From the NCBI RefSeq assembly GCF_001590835.1, contig NZ_LTAQ01000045.1:134795-198794 (forward strand): DNA of 64,000 nucleotides, read 5' to 3'. The DNA is from Bacillus gaemokensis (GTDB taxonomy: Bacteria > Bacillota > Bacilli > Bacillales > Bacillaceae_G). The translations under genes and the position numbers were made by a program. The notes beneath the pieces are model-generated. The model saw only the letters and a list, made by a program, of their open reading frames with translations. It was not told where the DNA came from and searched no databases. Positions 25,226-43,994 of the stretch are shown piece after piece. Positions within the stretch are counted from its first letter, which is position 1. Each line of letters opens with the position of its first letter.

Positions 25226-26758
25226 CTATACCTGCATTGCCTTCTCTCTCAAAGCTCTTCTCAGCAATTTACCTGTTGTATTCTTTGGTAATTCTTCCAA
25301 GAACTCGATACTTTTTGGCACTTTATATTTCGCAAGGTGTAAAGAACAATAATGCATCAGTTCCTCTTCTGTGACAACTCCTTGTTTCAGAACAGCATAC
25401 GCCCGTACCGCTTCGCCTAAATTCTCATCTGGAACACCAATTACAACAACTTCCGCAACCATCTCATGTTGATATAGCACTTCTTCTACTTCGCGAGGAT
25501 ATACATTATAGCCACCTACAAGGACAATATCCTTTTTACGGTCAACAATATAAAAATAACCTTCTTCATCCATTTTCGCTAAATCACCTGTATATAACCA
25601 TCCATCACGAAGCGTTGCCGCTGTATCTTCAGGTGCATTATAATAGCCCTTCATAACATTTGGACCACGAACAATCAGTTCGCCTACTTCACCGACAGAA
25701 ACTTCTTCGCCAAGCTCATTGACGATTTTATTTTCTACATGCCAAATATTTGTACCAATTGATCCTGGTTTACGCGGACGATCTAACGGATTAAAGCAAG
25801 TAACTGGTGAAGCCTCTGACAATCCATATCCTTCTGAAACAATAACTCCAAAGCGATTTTCAAAGTTTTTCAAAAGGGCAACGGGCATAGAAGCACCACC
25901 GGAAATACAGAGCCTAAGTGTTTGAACATCCTCCGCACTTGCTTCCTCATATAAATATAAATAATTATACATCGTCGGTACCCCAGCAAAGATTGTCGGC
26001 TCATATGTACGACAAATACGAAATACTTCTTTTGGACTAAACTTTGGTAACATTAAAATCGTCGCCCCATTAATAATTGGCGCATTCACTGCAACCGTTA
26101 AACAAAACACATGAAACATTGGAAGTGCCGCAACAATACGGTCTTCCCCTGTATATTGTAAATACGACGCTACATCGCTAGCATTACTGTATAAATTTTT
26201 ATGTGTTAACATAGCCCCTTTTGGTTTTCCTGTTGTGCCTGAAGTGTATAAAATAACCGCTACATCTTCTTCATCTAGCTCAGGACCTTCGTAGAATAGA
26301 TCTCCAGTTCCTACGAGACTAGTAAACGTTTTCATTTTTTCACTTTCTGTATGATTGAAATCTGATGAGGTTTCACATATGATGATATGTTCAAGTGAAG
26401 GAAGTCTTGTTGTAAGAGATTGTATAACAGGTAGAAGGACGTCGAGTGTGATGATTGTTTTTACATCTCCATTTTGTAAAATATAATGCATTTCATCTGC
26501 TGTATAAATTGGATTAATAGGAATGACAGTTGCTCCAGTTTTCATCGTTCCATATAGCCCAACTAAAAAATGTGGTGAATTACCTACAACTAATGCGACA
26601 TTGTCCCCTTTTCCAATGCCCATTTTTGCTAAATTACTAGAAAACCTCGTGACCATTTTGTTTAATTGGTCATACGAGACCGACTGATCCATAAAAATAT
26701 ACGCCGGTTTCTCTCCTTTCTTTGTTGCTGTTTCAGCTAAAGATTGAACGAGATTCAC
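25226..26758 (-). CDS. lcfB: Long-chain-fatty-acid-CoA ligase
   Basis: A 510-residue ANL-superfamily enzyme that activates fatty acids with ATP and CoA. The AMP-binding core VILYTSGTTGKPKGAMLTH is at about residue 170. The motifs EGYGLSEASP, GWLYTGDLAKMDEEGYFYIVDR and the C-terminal catalytic Lys in PKNTTGKLLRR are complete. The gene starts with GTG behind AAGGTGGGG. Its B. subtilis counterpart (yhfL/lcfB) also lies near lplJ and yhfI, supporting the call. An inverted repeat at 26778-26805 may control it. Substrate chain length is inferred from family only. Confidence 0.92.
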   Translation of the reverse strand: MNLVQSLAETATKKGEKPAYIFMDQSVSYDQLNKMVTRFSSNLAKMGIGKGDNVALVVGNSPHFLVGLYGTMKTGATVIPINPIYTADEMHYILQNGDVKTIITLDVLLPVIQSLTTRLPSLEHIIICETSSDFNHTESEKMKTFTSLVGTGDLFYEGPELDEEDVAVILYTSGTTGKPKGAMLTHKNLYSNASDVASYLQYTGEDRIVAALPMFHVFCLTVAVNAPIINGATILMLPKFSPKEVFRICRTYEPTIFAGVPTMYNYLYLYEEASAEDVQTLRLCISGGASMPVALLKNFENRFGVIVSEGYGLSEASPVTCFNPLDRPRKPGSIGTNIWHVENKIVNELGEEVSVGEVGELIVRGPNVMKGYYNAPEDTAATLRDGWLYTGDLAKMDEEGYFYIVDRKKDIVLVGGYNVYPREVEEVLYQHEMVAEVVVIGVPDENLGEAVRAYAVLKQGVVTEEELMHYCSLHLAKYKVPKSIEFLEELPKNTTGKLLRRALREKAMQV

Positions 26759-40388: not shown

Positions 40389-40416
40389 AAGCCTAAAGGA
40401 TCACTCCCCTAGGCTT
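40389..40416 (-). terminator. yhgE terminator
   Basis: AAGCCTA and TAGGCTT pair across a 14-nt loop at the yhgE stop, followed on the minus strand by TTTTTC. Confidence 0.7.
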
Positions 40417-43093
40417 CTATCGATTTCTCTTCTACTATATTTCTAAATTGACGCTTATGCATCCAAGTTAACGAACCTATTGTTCCGAGTGATAACAGAA
40501 CGATAAAGATCATTAAAATACCAGCATTTTGCCACATAAAGTCGAAGTCTCCACTTGATACCACCGCTTTAAAACCAGATACAGAATATGTCATCGGTAA
40601 CCAAGCGTTAAAGTATTGTAAAAACTTCGGAATTAACTCAAGTGGGAATGTACCCGCACTTGTTGTTAACTGCAGAATTAAGGTTAAAATCGCAATAAAT
40701 CGTCCTGCATCTCCAAATGCTGTTACTAAGCACTGAATTAATGCAATAAATGATAGACTTGTAAGAATACTAAATAAAATGAAGTATGGAACACTCTTTA
40801 CTTCCACACCTAATCCTAACAGCAGTACTAAATCTGCAACTAAAGCTTGGATAATACCTACTGATAATAAAACACCAAATTTACTAATAAACCAACTAAA
40901 TCCCGATTTCGGAATACCTACTGTATCACGCAGTGGATATACAATGGATAAAAGAAGCGCCCCAACGAATAGACCAAGAGATAAGAAATATGGTGTAAAT
41001 CCTGTTCCGTAGTTTGGTACTTCTGACATCTTCTCCGTTTGTACTTTCACTGGATCTGCAAACATGTCGTATGTTTTATCAGTTCCTTTTACTTCACCTG
41101 TTTTCTCAGCACCCTCACCAAGTTTTGCAGCGAGTTCATTTGTTCCGTCATTTACTTTGACTAAACCATCTGTTACTTTTTCAGATCCGTCTGCTAGTTT
41201 GTTTACTCCGTCGATTAATTGATTGGAACCGTTTGACATTGTTCCTAAGCCATTTGTTACTTGGCTTGAGCCATCTGCTAATGTTCCTAAGCCATTTGTT
41301 ACTTGGCTTGAGCCATCTGCTAATGTTCCTAAGCCATTCGTTACTTGACTAGAGCCATCTGCTAATTGATTAACACCTGTAATTAATTGACCTGAACCTG
41401 TTGATAATGTACCTATCCCTCCATTTAACTTACCTGCACCATTTGTTAGTTCACTTACTCCATTTACAAGTTTCGGACCATTTTCAGCTAATTGACTAAC
41501 ACCATCATTCAATTGCTTACTTCCTGATGCTAATCGATCGGCTCCAGATTTTGCCGCATCTAACCCTTTACCAAATTCTTGGAACTTAGCAACGAATTCA
41601 TTTTGTCCTTTTGTTAACTCATTCACACCAGCGACTAAGCCATTTAGCTTCTCTGGATTTGGTAATTTCGCTTGTAATCCTTTTGTTGTTGCATTTACTT
41701 TTTCTTGTAACTGCGACACTTCTACTTTTAATTGACTTGTTGCACTTGCTACTCCAGCTGATTTCTTTTGAACGCTAGTTGTACTATTCGTAGCATTCGT
41801 TATAAAAGGGGTTAATTGGTCTTGATATTCTTTTGGTAAACTTTCAATTTGTTTTTTCAGAGCAGCTACGTCTTGTGTTGCTTTATTCGCCTCCTCTGCA
41901 TTAGACAGAGAAACTGCGTCTAATCGACTTATATTGTCTGCTGCGTCATCTACCTCTTTATTTGCTTTTTGTATTGCCGCTGGTATTTCTTGCATGTCTG
42001 AGAATCCAGTTACAGCATTTTGCAATTGATTATTTAATCCTTGTAAACCTTTTTGAATTTTTTGTGCACCTTGTTCTAATTGCCCTTGCGCACCGTTAAG
42101 TGTTCCCACGCCGCTCGAAAGATCAGCAGTACCTTTTTGTAATTCATTAGAACCGGATGAAGCACGTTTTAAACCAGCATTAAACTCAATTGATTTGCCT
42201 GTTAATTCTTTTAAACCACCATATAATTGACCTGAACCATTAGAAAGATCGCCTATTCCTTTTTGTAGTTCGCTAGATTTATTAACTAATAAGTTTAAAC
42301 CGTCTGTTACTTTTCCAGAACCATTTAATAGCTTATTTGCACCGTCTGTTACCTTGCCAGAACCATCTAATAGTTTATTTGCACCATCTGTTACCTTGCC
42401 AGAACCATCTTGTAATTTGTTGACTCCAACTACCATCTCTCCAGACTTCCCTTGCAGCGTATGCAAGCCATCTGTTACCTTGCCAGAACCATCTTGTAAC
42501 TCTCCAGCTCCATCATGTAACTTATTCGCTCCATCCGCTCCATCAGCGAGACCTTGTGAAACATCTTTTATCGAATCAAACATTTTCTCTGCATACGTTT
42601 TTGTTAATGTACTCGATACTTCACCTTTAATTTTTTCAATGGCTGTTCCACCAATTTGTGAAGATAAGAAGTTTAAGCTTTCATTTGGAATATATTCTAA
42701 GTTTAATGGTTTTGGATTTTCTTTTAACAGCGTTGTCGCATTGTCTGAGAAATTATCTGGAATACGAACTAGCATATAGTATTTCCTGTTCTCCATTCCT
42801 TCTCTCGCTGTTTTTTCACTAACAAACTCCCATTTGAAACTTTTATTATCTTTTAATTTATCTACGAGTCCTTTACCAACCTCAATTGGTTTGCCATCAA
42901 ATACTGCACCTTGATCTAGATTCACTACCGCGACCGGCAAATCATCTAACTGTTCATATGGATCCCAAAACGCCCATAAAAACATCCCCGCATATAAAAG
43001 TGGTACAAATAAAACGGCTATAATGGGTATTAAAATTTTTTTACTTTTTATAATCTCTACAAATTCCTTACCAAGTAACGTAAATCCTTTCAT
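40409..43093 (-). CDS. yhgE: YhgE/Pip family membrane protein
   Basis: An 894-residue protein of the YhgE/Pip (phage infection protein) family. One N-terminal helix (about residues 20-40) and about five C-terminal helices (from about residue 715) flank a very long extracellular segment. That segment is built of repeats with LxDGSxKVTDG and LADGSSQVTNG units, typical of these proteins, and is predicted to form a long fibre. The C-terminus resembles ABC-2 permeases. In other Firmicutes, Pip serves as a phage receptor and YhgE-like proteins are tied to type VII secretion. Four matching operators link it to the upstream TetR gene. Tandem 42-bp units suggest length variation. Confidence 0.9.
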   Translation of the reverse strand: MKGFTLLGKEFVEIIKSKKILIPIIAVLFVPLLYAGMFLWAFWDPYEQLDDLPVAVVNLDQGAVFDGKPIEVGKGLVDKLKDNKSFKWEFVSEKTAREGMENRKYYMLVRIPDNFSDNATTLLKENPKPLNLEYIPNESLNFLSSQIGGTAIEKIKGEVSSTLTKTYAEKMFDSIKDVSQGLADGADGANKLHDGAGELQDGSGKVTDGLHTLQGKSGEMVVGVNKLQDGSGKVTDGANKLLDGSGKVTDGANKLLNGSGKVTDGLNLLVNKSSELQKGIGDLSNGSGQLYGGLKELTGKSIEFNAGLKRASSGSNELQKGTADLSSGVGTLNGAQGQLEQGAQKIQKGLQGLNNQLQNAVTGFSDMQEIPAAIQKANKEVDDAADNISRLDAVSLSNAEEANKATQDVAALKKQIESLPKEYQDQLTPFITNATNSTTSVQKKSAGVASATSQLKVEVSQLQEKVNATTKGLQAKLPNPEKLNGLVAGVNELTKGQNEFVAKFQEFGKGLDAAKSGADRLASGSKQLNDGVSQLAENGPKLVNGVSELTNGAGKLNGGIGTLSTGSGQLITGVNQLADGSSQVTNGLGTLADGSSQVTNGLGTLADGSSQVTNGLGTMSNGSNQLIDGVNKLADGSEKVTDGLVKVNDGTNELAAKLGEGAEKTGEVKGTDKTYDMFADPVKVQTEKMSEVPNYGTGFTPYFLSLGLFVGALLLSIVYPLRDTVGIPKSGFSWFISKFGVLLSVGIIQALVADLVLLLGLGVEVKSVPYFILFSILTSLSFIALIQCLVTAFGDAGRFIAILTLILQLTTSAGTFPLELIPKFLQYFNAWLPMTYSVSGFKAVVSSGDFDFMWQNAGILMIFIVLLSLGTIGSLTWMHKRQFRNIVEEKSIEA
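41241..41366. repeat. Three tandem 42-bp units inside yhgE
   Basis: Units at 41241-41282 and 41283-41324 are identical and the third (41325-41366) differs at three bases. Each encodes a 14-residue LxTLADGSSQVTNG-type unit. A second, more diverged set of 42-bp units lies at about 42280-42500. Confidence 0.9.
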
Positions 43094-43115: not shown

Positions 43116-43138
43116 TGACTACTTTGTTCATACGGTCA
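43116..43138. promoter_or_regulatory. YhgD-type operator 1 (yhgE promoter)
   Basis: Read on the minus strand, TGACCGTAT-N8-TAGTCA, a 23-bp partial dyad, 22 bp ahead of the yhgE start codon. One of four matching sites. Confidence 0.7.
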
Positions 43139-43235
43139 TTTTATAACAAATAAAAAGACTATAGCATGTTATATATATTACCTAGCCCTAACTTTTATGA
43201 TCTAATTTTTATATTATGTTTCTTTTTATTTTAAA

Positions 43236-43258
43236 TGACCGTTTAATCCACCTAGTCA
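43236..43258. promoter_or_regulatory. YhgD-type operator 2
   Basis: TGACCGTTT-N8-TAGTCA, 23 bp, mid-way between yhgD and yhgE. Confidence 0.7.
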
Positions 43259-43333
43259 ATGCAAACAAATAAAATGATCTTTTTGATAATCGTATATACT
43301 TAATCTGCTGTTTTTTATATCCCCTCTCACTTT

Positions 43334-43356
43334 TGACCATTTTATTTAATTAGTCA
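43334..43356. promoter_or_regulatory. YhgD-type operator 3
   Basis: TGACCATTT-N8-TAGTCA, 23 bp, 27 bp past the yhgD stop, in the yhgE upstream region. Confidence 0.7.
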
Positions 43357-43382
43357 TTTTTATATATAATAAAAGGATTATC

Positions 43383-43955
43383 TTAATTTGACAATCCTTT
43401 TAATAAATAAAGTTCGAAAAGCTCTGCAATTCTCTCTTTTTCTAATGGTTTATGATTTTTTTCCCAATCAAAGATCAGTGATACATATAGTCGAAGCATA
43501 ATAAATGCCGTGATTTCTGGGTCACATTTACTAATCTCGCCTTTTTCAATCGCGATTTCTAAATAGGATTGAATAACAGATACAATTTCAACATCAACTT
43601 GCTGCATAACCTCTTGTACTTCTTTCGTTCCCATATCTCGCTCTTCTTGAATGAGTTTAATCATGAGCTGATGTTCTTTTCTAAACTCTAAAATGCTATA
43701 TAATGCTCTATGTACATTTTCAAAAAATGAAACTTCTGGACGAATTGCTTCTTTTGCAACTTGCTTCATTTCTGTAATTAAATTAGAAATAATTTCTCCG
43801 AATAATTCCTCTTTGTTTTTGAAAAAAGTATAAATCGTTCCTTTTCCGACATTCGCTAGTTTAGCAACTTGATCCATTGTTGTTGCCTTATAGCCAAAAG
43901 CTGAAAAAGATTTTGTCGCAGCTTCAATGATAGAACGTTTTCGATCTACTGCCAC
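43383..43955 (-). CDS. yhgD: TetR-family regulator YhgD
   Basis: A 190-residue TetR-type repressor. The helix-turn-helix sits at about residues 25-45 (TTMDQVAKLANVGKGTIYTF), followed by an all-helical ligand/dimer domain. GGAGGTGAAGAT precedes the GTG start. The gene lies directly upstream of yhgE, as in B. subtilis. Three identical-format operators stand in the 290-bp gap before yhgE and one covers its own promoter. This strongly suggests that it represses both. No ligand can be inferred. Confidence 0.9.
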   Translation of the reverse strand: MAVDRKRSIIEAATKSFSAFGYKATTMDQVAKLANVGKGTIYTFFKNKEELFGEIISNLITEMKQVAKEAIRPEVSFFENVHRALYSILEFRKEHQLMIKLIQEERDMGTKEVQEVMQQVDVEIVSVIQSYLEIAIEKGEISKCDPEITAFIMLRLYVSLIFDWEKNHKPLEKERIAELFELYLLKGLSN

Positions 43956-43971
43956 ATCTTCACCTCCAAAA

Positions 43972-43994
43972 TGACCATTTGGATAATATAGTCA
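43972..43994. promoter_or_regulatory. YhgD-type operator 4 (yhgD promoter)
   Basis: TGACCATTT-N8-TAGTCA, 23 bp, 17 bp ahead of the yhgD start codon. Confidence 0.7.

What the first reader, a model, noticed from the sequence alone, without database searches (positions are those of the whole stretch)
43116..43994. Four copies of a 23-bp operator tie YhgD to yhgE and to itself
TGACCRTWT-N8-TAGTCA occurs at 43116-43138, 43236-43258, 43334-43356 and 43972-43994, always 23 bp long. Three sites lie in the 290 bp between yhgD and yhgE and one at the yhgD promoter. TetR proteins bind such dyads. To my knowledge the operator of this YhgD/YhgE pair is not described. Several sites ahead of a large surface protein (possible phage receptor or secretion factor) suggest tight silencing.
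Basis: partly seen in the sequence, partly recalled or inferred. Interest (0 to 1): 0.72.

Follow-up and report, generated by a model that had tools for sequence, protein, structure and literature searches.

The report
YhgD repressor sites guarding yhgD and yhgE
Four copies of a short palindrome beside a regulator gene and a membrane-protein gene are very probably the switches by which the regulator controls itself and its partner gene; the arrangement is of a familiar kind, but we found no published description of this switch in the library we could search.

Summary
The four sites are real and exact. They belong to a broader 23-bp palindrome, TGACY-N13-RGTCA. Of 80 YhgD-orthologue loci, 77 carry it upstream of yhgD; of the 70 with yhgE adjacent, 69 carry it between the genes; 3 further copies occur in 748 kb of flanks. 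In the 10 genomes where yhgE is not beside that yhgD, an unlinked yhgE carries the operator; nearly all are one clade, so perhaps two independent cases. In 15 genomes, 25 of 38 strict matches are at yhgD/yhgE, and 11 of the other 13 lie in long open frames. Nine distant TetR paralogues have none.

YhgD is therefore very probably an autorepressor with a local regulon. A B. subtilis array shows both genes rising together, 7.5x and 5.1x (PMC4326333). Relatives usually have one inter-gene operator, 14-18 nt after a hairpin near the yhgD stop; the window has three, perhaps by duplication. Binding, inducer and 'tight silencing' are untested. A fifth strong palindrome lies inside an acyl-CoA ligase gene (26650-26672). 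Ordinary in kind; no published description found.

The parts
43972..43994 (.). operator 1, in the yhgD promoter/leader region (TGACCATTTGGATAATATAGTCA)
   Evidence: 0 mismatches to the reported motif; 28.7 bits, best 23-mer in the window by the relatives' matrix; a corresponding site in 77 of 80 loci
43334..43356 (.). operator 2, first inter-gene operator, 26 bp after the yhgD stop codon
   Evidence: 23.5 bits; an inter-gene site is present in 69 of the 70 loci with yhgE adjacent
43236..43258 (.). operator 3, middle inter-gene operator (the weakest)
   Evidence: 15.2 bits, against a maximum of 12.8 in 20 random sequences
43116..43138 (.). operator 4, 22 bp upstream of the yhgE start codon; centre TATGAACAAAG like relatives' inter-gene sites
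   Evidence: 24.1 bits
43383..43955 (-). yhgD, TetR-family regulator (190 aa)
   Evidence: Pfam TetR_N 58.3 bits (cut-off 24) and TetR_C_24 30.3 (cut-off 26.4); nine-helix predicted fold, mean pLDDT 90.8
40409..43093 (-). yhgE, YhgE/Pip-family membrane protein (894 aa)
   Evidence: TIGR03061 200.4 bits and TIGR03062 222.4 bits, both above cut-off
43370..43402 (-). terminator-like hairpin overlapping the yhgD stop codon, ending 13 nt before operator 2
   Evidence: 13-pair stem; RNA fold of 43357-43415 z = -4.78; hairpins in the corresponding place in relatives
43366..43394 (-). candidate yhgE promoter TTGTCA-17-TATTAT lying within the hairpin (tentative)
   Evidence: 10 of 12 consensus matches, but promoter-like hits in this region are no more frequent than in shuffles: 5 found, 7.3 expected

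Best explanation
YhgD is a TetR-family autorepressor whose dimer recognises the 23-bp palindrome TGACY-N13-RGTCA. At its own promoter the operator probably lies just downstream of the transcription start (in relatives the predicted -10 box most often begins about 20 bp before it), so bound YhgD would block promoter clearance or early elongation. Between yhgD and yhgE, a hairpin at the yhgD stop codon followed by one operator (three in the window) gates transcription into yhgE. When an inducer, not identified, releases YhgD, both genes come on together. The regulon is essentially yhgD plus yhgE. Shown here: the sites, their conservation, their placement, and their presence at yhgE also when it is unlinked. 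Inferred: binding, repression, the blocking step and induction.
For: Operator upstream of yhgD in 77 of 80 orthologue loci and between the genes in 69 of 70 with yhgE adjacent; 3 further copies in 748 kb. In the 10 genomes (of the 80 loci) where yhgE is not beside that yhgD, an unlinked yhgE carries the operator; in 9 of the 10 the best-scoring promoter is TTGATA-17-TATATT with its -10 starting 18-20 bp before the operator, like yhgD. In 15 whole genomes 25 of 38 strict matches are at yhgD/yhgE (reversed control: 6 places), and 11 of the other 13 lie in open frames of at least 297 codons. In an evenly drawn sample of 61 genomes of one order, 49 have a match, 109 places against 26 for the reversed control (my sums of the rows). 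Of 18 further YhgD homologues at 51-76% identity, 17 carry the upstream site, and 7 of 7 with yhgE adjacent carry the inter-gene one; 9 more distant TetR paralogues (26-31% over most of the protein, one a short 52% match) have none. Of residues 34-48, holding the predicted recognition helix (38-44), 14 of 15 are invariant or at least 90% conserved in 39 sequences. yhgD and yhgE rise together, 7.5x and 5.1x, in B. subtilis OKB105 exposed to rice seedlings (PMC4326333, section 7 part 1).
Against: No binding or expression data for this organism, and no genome of it was held. No close relative of the window's strain came up (best YhgD identity 80%), so conservation of the three-site array could not be tested. 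The 10 unlinked cases are mostly one clade (9 alike in promoter and leader), so they may stand for only about two separations; and I went from site to gene, so yhgE copies without a site in those genomes were not looked for. With the looser pattern used on 8 of those genomes, 17 of 53 places are at yhgD/yhgE and the control gives 34 places (my sums): most loose matches are background. The window's own promoter calls are weak: 5 hits against 7.3 expected in shuffles, and the best-scoring yhgD promoter reaches only 7 of 12 and lies elsewhere than in relatives. One of 18 extra homologues (L120) and 3 of 80 loci lack the upstream site. PMC2743287 reports yhgD repressed 9-fold by glutamate without mention of yhgE in the main text.
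Confidence: 0.87

Rival explanations
1. The palindrome is the site of another regulator that controls both genes, and YhgD is a bystander.
For: No binding data exist here; another dimeric regulator could also read a palindrome.
Against: Most strict matches in 15 genomes are at yhgD or yhgE (25 of 38); the site sits upstream of YhgD homologues also where no yhgE is adjacent (8 of 10 such loci among the 80; 10 of 11 among the extra homologues); the YhgD recognition-helix region is nearly invariant.
Confidence: 0.07
2. YhgD activates rather than represses yhgE.
For: Some TetR proteins activate; FasR, the best NCBIfam hit though far below its cut-off (54.4 against 330), is annotated as an activator.
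Against: The operator lies downstream of the predicted -10 box at yhgD (start at -21 or -20 in 40 of 77) and at 9 of 10 unlinked yhgE genes, a place that suits blocking rather than recruiting polymerase (general knowledge).
Confidence: 0.05
3. The three inter-gene copies are remnants of a local duplication and only one is used.
For: The 5' flanks of the three sites are weakly alike (shuffle p 0.023, 0.024 and 0.054; 3' flanks not alike); most relatives manage with one (66 of 80 loci have exactly one upstream and one inter-gene site).
Against: All three keep the TGACY/RGTCA arms while their flanks differ, and two other loci also have two exact inter-gene sites.
Confidence: 0.35

Closest known systems
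TetR/AcrR autorepressors with a neighbouring membrane-protein target
   Same: TetR HTH and predicted fold, palindromic operator at its own promoter region, one neighbouring membrane-protein target
   Different: A 23-bp palindrome with 13 bp between the arms; the target is a YhgE/Pip protein rather than a classic efflux pump; the inter-gene operator sits behind a hairpin at the regulator's stop codon
FatR/Bm3R1 (Bacillus TetR displaced by fatty acids; Bm3R1 described as acting by roadblock; passages of PMC3814354)
   Same: A Bacillus TetR repressor; operator placed so as to block transcription; the paper says B. subtilis YhgD has the conserved Tyr45
   Different: Different target (a cytochrome P450); YhgD was not phosphorylated by PtkA; no fatty-acid response of YhgD in the passages seen
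Bacillus FadR and FasR
   Same: Weak profile similarity (51.6 and 54.4 bits)
   Different: Far below the family cut-offs of 200 and 330
YhgE/Pip proteins: Lactococcus PIP and Enterococcus PIP_EF (passages of PMC4999554)
   Same: YhgE/Pip family; the paper names a YhgE/PIP domain in PIP_EF
   Different: No phage requirement is shown for this Bacillus-type YhgE

Membership tests
TetR/AcrR family regulators | TetR_N helix-turn-helix domain | tested here: met
   PF00440 58.3 bits, cut-off 24
TetR/AcrR family regulators | All-helical fold with N-terminal HTH | tested here: met
   Nine helices, no strands, mean pLDDT 90.8; comparison with solved folds was not accepted
TetR/AcrR family regulators | Dimer binding to a palindromic operator, released by a ligand | not testable with these tools
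   Palindrome conserved; binding and ligand need experiment
YhgE/Pip family | Both YhgE/Pip terminal domains above cut-off | tested here: met
   TIGR03061 200.4 (cut-off 96.15) and TIGR03062 222.4 (102.2)
EsaA (type VII secretion) | EsaA N-terminal model above cut-off | tested here: not met
   TIGR03929 77.4 bits, cut-off 122
Bacillus FadR | NF053878 above cut-off | tested here: not met
   51.6 bits, cut-off 200
FasR | NF053731 above cut-off | tested here: not met
   54.4 bits, cut-off 330
Roadblock-type repressor | Operator downstream of the transcription start | tested here: inconclusive
   Predicted -10 boxes start at -21 or -20 before the operator in 40 of 77 loci and 18-20 bp before it at 9 of 10 unlinked yhgE genes; no start is mapped, and the window's own promoter is uncertain

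The most novel reading that the evidence does not exclude
Hairpin and operator form one composite gate. In relatives a terminator-like hairpin at the yhgD stop codon ends 14-18 nt before the operator (65 of 69 loci), and no promoter of the yhgD kind stands at one fixed place before it, so bound YhgD could stop polymerase over the terminator and make readthrough into yhgE depend on the inducer: a repressor-controlled terminator. In the window this module would have been copied into a three-operator array. In addition, the fifth palindrome inside the acyl-CoA ligase gene could extend YhgD control to fatty-acid activation.
Probability: 0.2. Interest if true: 0.62.

Novelty: new member of a known kind. 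Interest (0 to 1): 0.42.

Why it matters
A YhgE/Pip relative is required for phage infection in Enterococcus (PMC4999554, passages), and that paper calls the YhgE/PIP domain conserved and without known function. A well-defined operator and a two-gene regulon make the question tractable: a reporter on this operator could find the inducer, which would point to what YhgE does. The hairpin-operator pairing, if functional, would be a compact example of a repressor acting together with a terminator.

Tried and rejected
Whole-genome scan of the window's own strain: not held. Plasmid records: one weak match, covering 10% of the query. Literature for a described operator: ten searches (one search was on roadblocks and terminators) showed none. 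The whole word YhgD is in 7 held papers: three B. subtilis arrays (section or passages seen), the FatR paper (passages seen) and three on Lactococcus pilus genes of the same name (listing only). Databases such as RegPrecise and SubtiWiki could not be searched, so a database-only prediction is not excluded; one 2013 paper that I recalled as a B. subtilis regulon reconstruction was not held.

A wide regulon: not supported, since 11 of the 13 strict matches away from yhgD/yhgE lie in long open frames; two (L102, L106) do not and remain possible. In the 8 genomes the looser pattern left 36 places away from yhgD/yhgE (of 53), of which I fetched one (L162: no long frame, no yhgE). The acyl-CoA ligase palindrome as a conserved operator: in 26 homologous genes found among the 80 loci, at most 6 of the 10 arm bases match at that place. 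Hairpin and operator as an obligatory unit: counter-example L111, where about 150 bp separate them. Covariation support for the hairpin is thin: 7 double changes in all, over 4 of its 9 pairs, although its folding energy is well below shuffles (mean -11.2 against -3.95 kcal/mol, mononucleotide shuffles). For the inter-gene operator the best-scoring -10 positions are scattered, with clusters at +12 (18 of 69), -5 (13) and -26 (10); a weak yhgE promoter there is not excluded. Duplication of 3' flanks: not supported.

Full report
Observation. The four 23-bp sites are present at the stated coordinates with no mismatch. yhgD (43383-43955, minus) and yhgE (40409-43093, minus) lie head to tail with a 289-bp gap that holds three sites; the fourth is 16 bp upstream of the yhgD start codon. 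YhgD is a TetR-family protein and YhgE a YhgE/Pip protein, with domain scores above the curated cut-offs. The surroundings keep the order pbpF-hemE-hemH-hemY ... yhgD-yhgE ... yhfI-lplJ-acyl-CoA ligase seen in relatives, with genes inserted between (the gene names are recalled, the matches are from the call).

Is it more than chance. The genome of the window is not held, so I used relatives. TGACY-N13-RGTCA occurs upstream of yhgD in 77 of 80; yhgE is adjacent in 70 of 80, and 69 of those 70 have an inter-gene site; loci with a miss are L002, L038, L060 and L074. Outside these places there are 3 copies in 748 kb. A matrix from the relatives' 127 distinct sites ranks the window's four sites first, third, fourth and fifth, all above the best score in 20 random 64-kb sequences; the second rank is a palindrome at 26650-26672 inside an acyl-CoA ligase gene.

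Does it follow the genes. In 10 of the 80 loci yhgE is not adjacent. Pattern scans of those 10 genomes (2, 8) each gave a site which, when fetched, lies upstream of an unlinked yhgE, 143-192 bp from where the yhgE match begins. In 9 of these 10 the best-scoring promoter is TTGATA-17-TATATT with the -10 starting 18-20 bp before the operator; for the tenth (L097) the best score lies elsewhere, though by eye a TTGATT-17-TATTCT stands at about -20. At yhgD itself the best -10 starts at -21 or -20 in 40 of 77 loci, and 55 of 77 have a TG before it. The operator therefore probably lies just inside the transcribed region at both genes. Two cautions: nearly all these genomes belong to one clade (titles), so there may be only about two independent separations; and I went from site to gene and did not look for yhgE copies without a site.

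Regulon size. A strict form of the motif gives 38 places in 15 whole genomes (66.5 Mb by the rounded sizes listed), 25 of them at yhgD or yhgE; the reversed control gives 6. All 13 others were fetched: 11 lie inside open frames of at least 297 codons, 2 do not. By that rate (13 in 66.5 Mb) a 64-kb window would hold about 0.01 such matches by chance, so the acyl-CoA ligase palindrome is a mild surprise. With a looser pattern on 8 genomes, 17 of 53 places are at yhgD/yhgE and the control gives 34 (my sums). In an even sample of 61 genomes of one order, 49 have a strict match; the rows sum to 109 places against 26 for the control; three of these genomes (G012, G014, G028) had been searched before. 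These places were not assigned to genes, but in the listing, which was cut, 13 genomes show a pair 635-651 bp apart, the yhgD spacing. Among 18 further YhgD homologues not already in the set, 17 have the upstream site and all 7 with yhgE adjacent have the inter-gene one; 9 more distant TetR paralogues have none.

Hairpin and operator. In relatives the inter-gene operator follows a hairpin, mostly overlapping the yhgD stop codon, and then a T-rich run. In 69 loci the mean folding energy is -11.2 kcal/mol against -3.95 for shuffles, and the stem ends 14-18 nt before the operator in 65 of 69. The best-scoring promoter positions before the inter-gene operator are scattered, so linked yhgE may depend on readthrough from yhgD; a weak promoter is not excluded. 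Against a strict unit: L111 has about 150 bp between hairpin and operator, and covariation is thin. The window keeps the hairpin (z -4.78), ending 13 nt before its first inter-gene operator; its tail is A-rich as well as T-rich and contains a promoter-like TTGTCA-17-TATTAT, in a region where such hits are no more frequent than in shuffles.

Three sites. Relatives usually have one inter-gene site; two of 80 loci have two exact ones, and L080 has a second with one mismatch. The three window copies share weakly similar 5' flanks (shuffle p 0.023-0.054) but not 3' flanks, which fits an old local duplication but does not prove it. Whether all three are used is unknown.

Published expression. In B. 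subtilis OKB105 exposed to rice seedlings, yhgD is up 7.5-fold and yhgE 5.1-fold in the table of up-regulated genes, together with the exporter genes ydgH and yhcA (PMC4326333, section 7 part 1 read). Glutamate lowers yhgD 9-fold (PMC2743287, passages), and yhgD is listed at 4.6-fold in a table of genes changed by low electric current (PMC3294250, one passage). PMC3814354 used B. subtilis YhgD as a control for PtkA phosphorylation, with a negative result (passages). None of the passages seen describes the operator.

Verdict. The finding is right in its core: a conserved operator ties yhgD and yhgE, and YhgD is its likely reader. It is a normal kind of local TetR autoregulation, for which the library searched showed no published description. 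The composite hairpin-operator gate, the three-copy array and the acyl-CoA ligase palindrome are the open and more interesting parts.

Noticed in passing
26650-26672: A perfect-armed TGACC-N13-GGTCA palindrome (25.7 bits, second best in the window by the relatives' matrix) inside the 5' part of an acyl-CoA ligase gene (25226-26758, minus); not found at the homologous place in 26 relatives' genes.
   Followed up: partly
L113 and L126 (G029); L119 and L127 (G024): Two genomes carry two YhgD homologues each; one copy has yhgE beside it, the other has none within the stretch held, yet still has the upstream palindrome.
   Followed up: partly
L102:2955-2977 and L106:2788-2810: Two strict palindromes away from yhgD/yhgE that are not inside long open frames; possible extra operators.
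   Followed up: no
L160 and L161 (G039): A genome with an unlinked yhgE and also a second yhgD-yhgE pair, all carrying the palindrome, while its first yhgD (L074) lacks an exact one.
   Followed up: partly
upstream and inter-gene sites of L001-L080: The operator centre is asymmetric: mostly TGTTCA at yhgD and its reverse complement TGAACA at the inter-gene site, so the two operators face opposite ways.
   Followed up: partly
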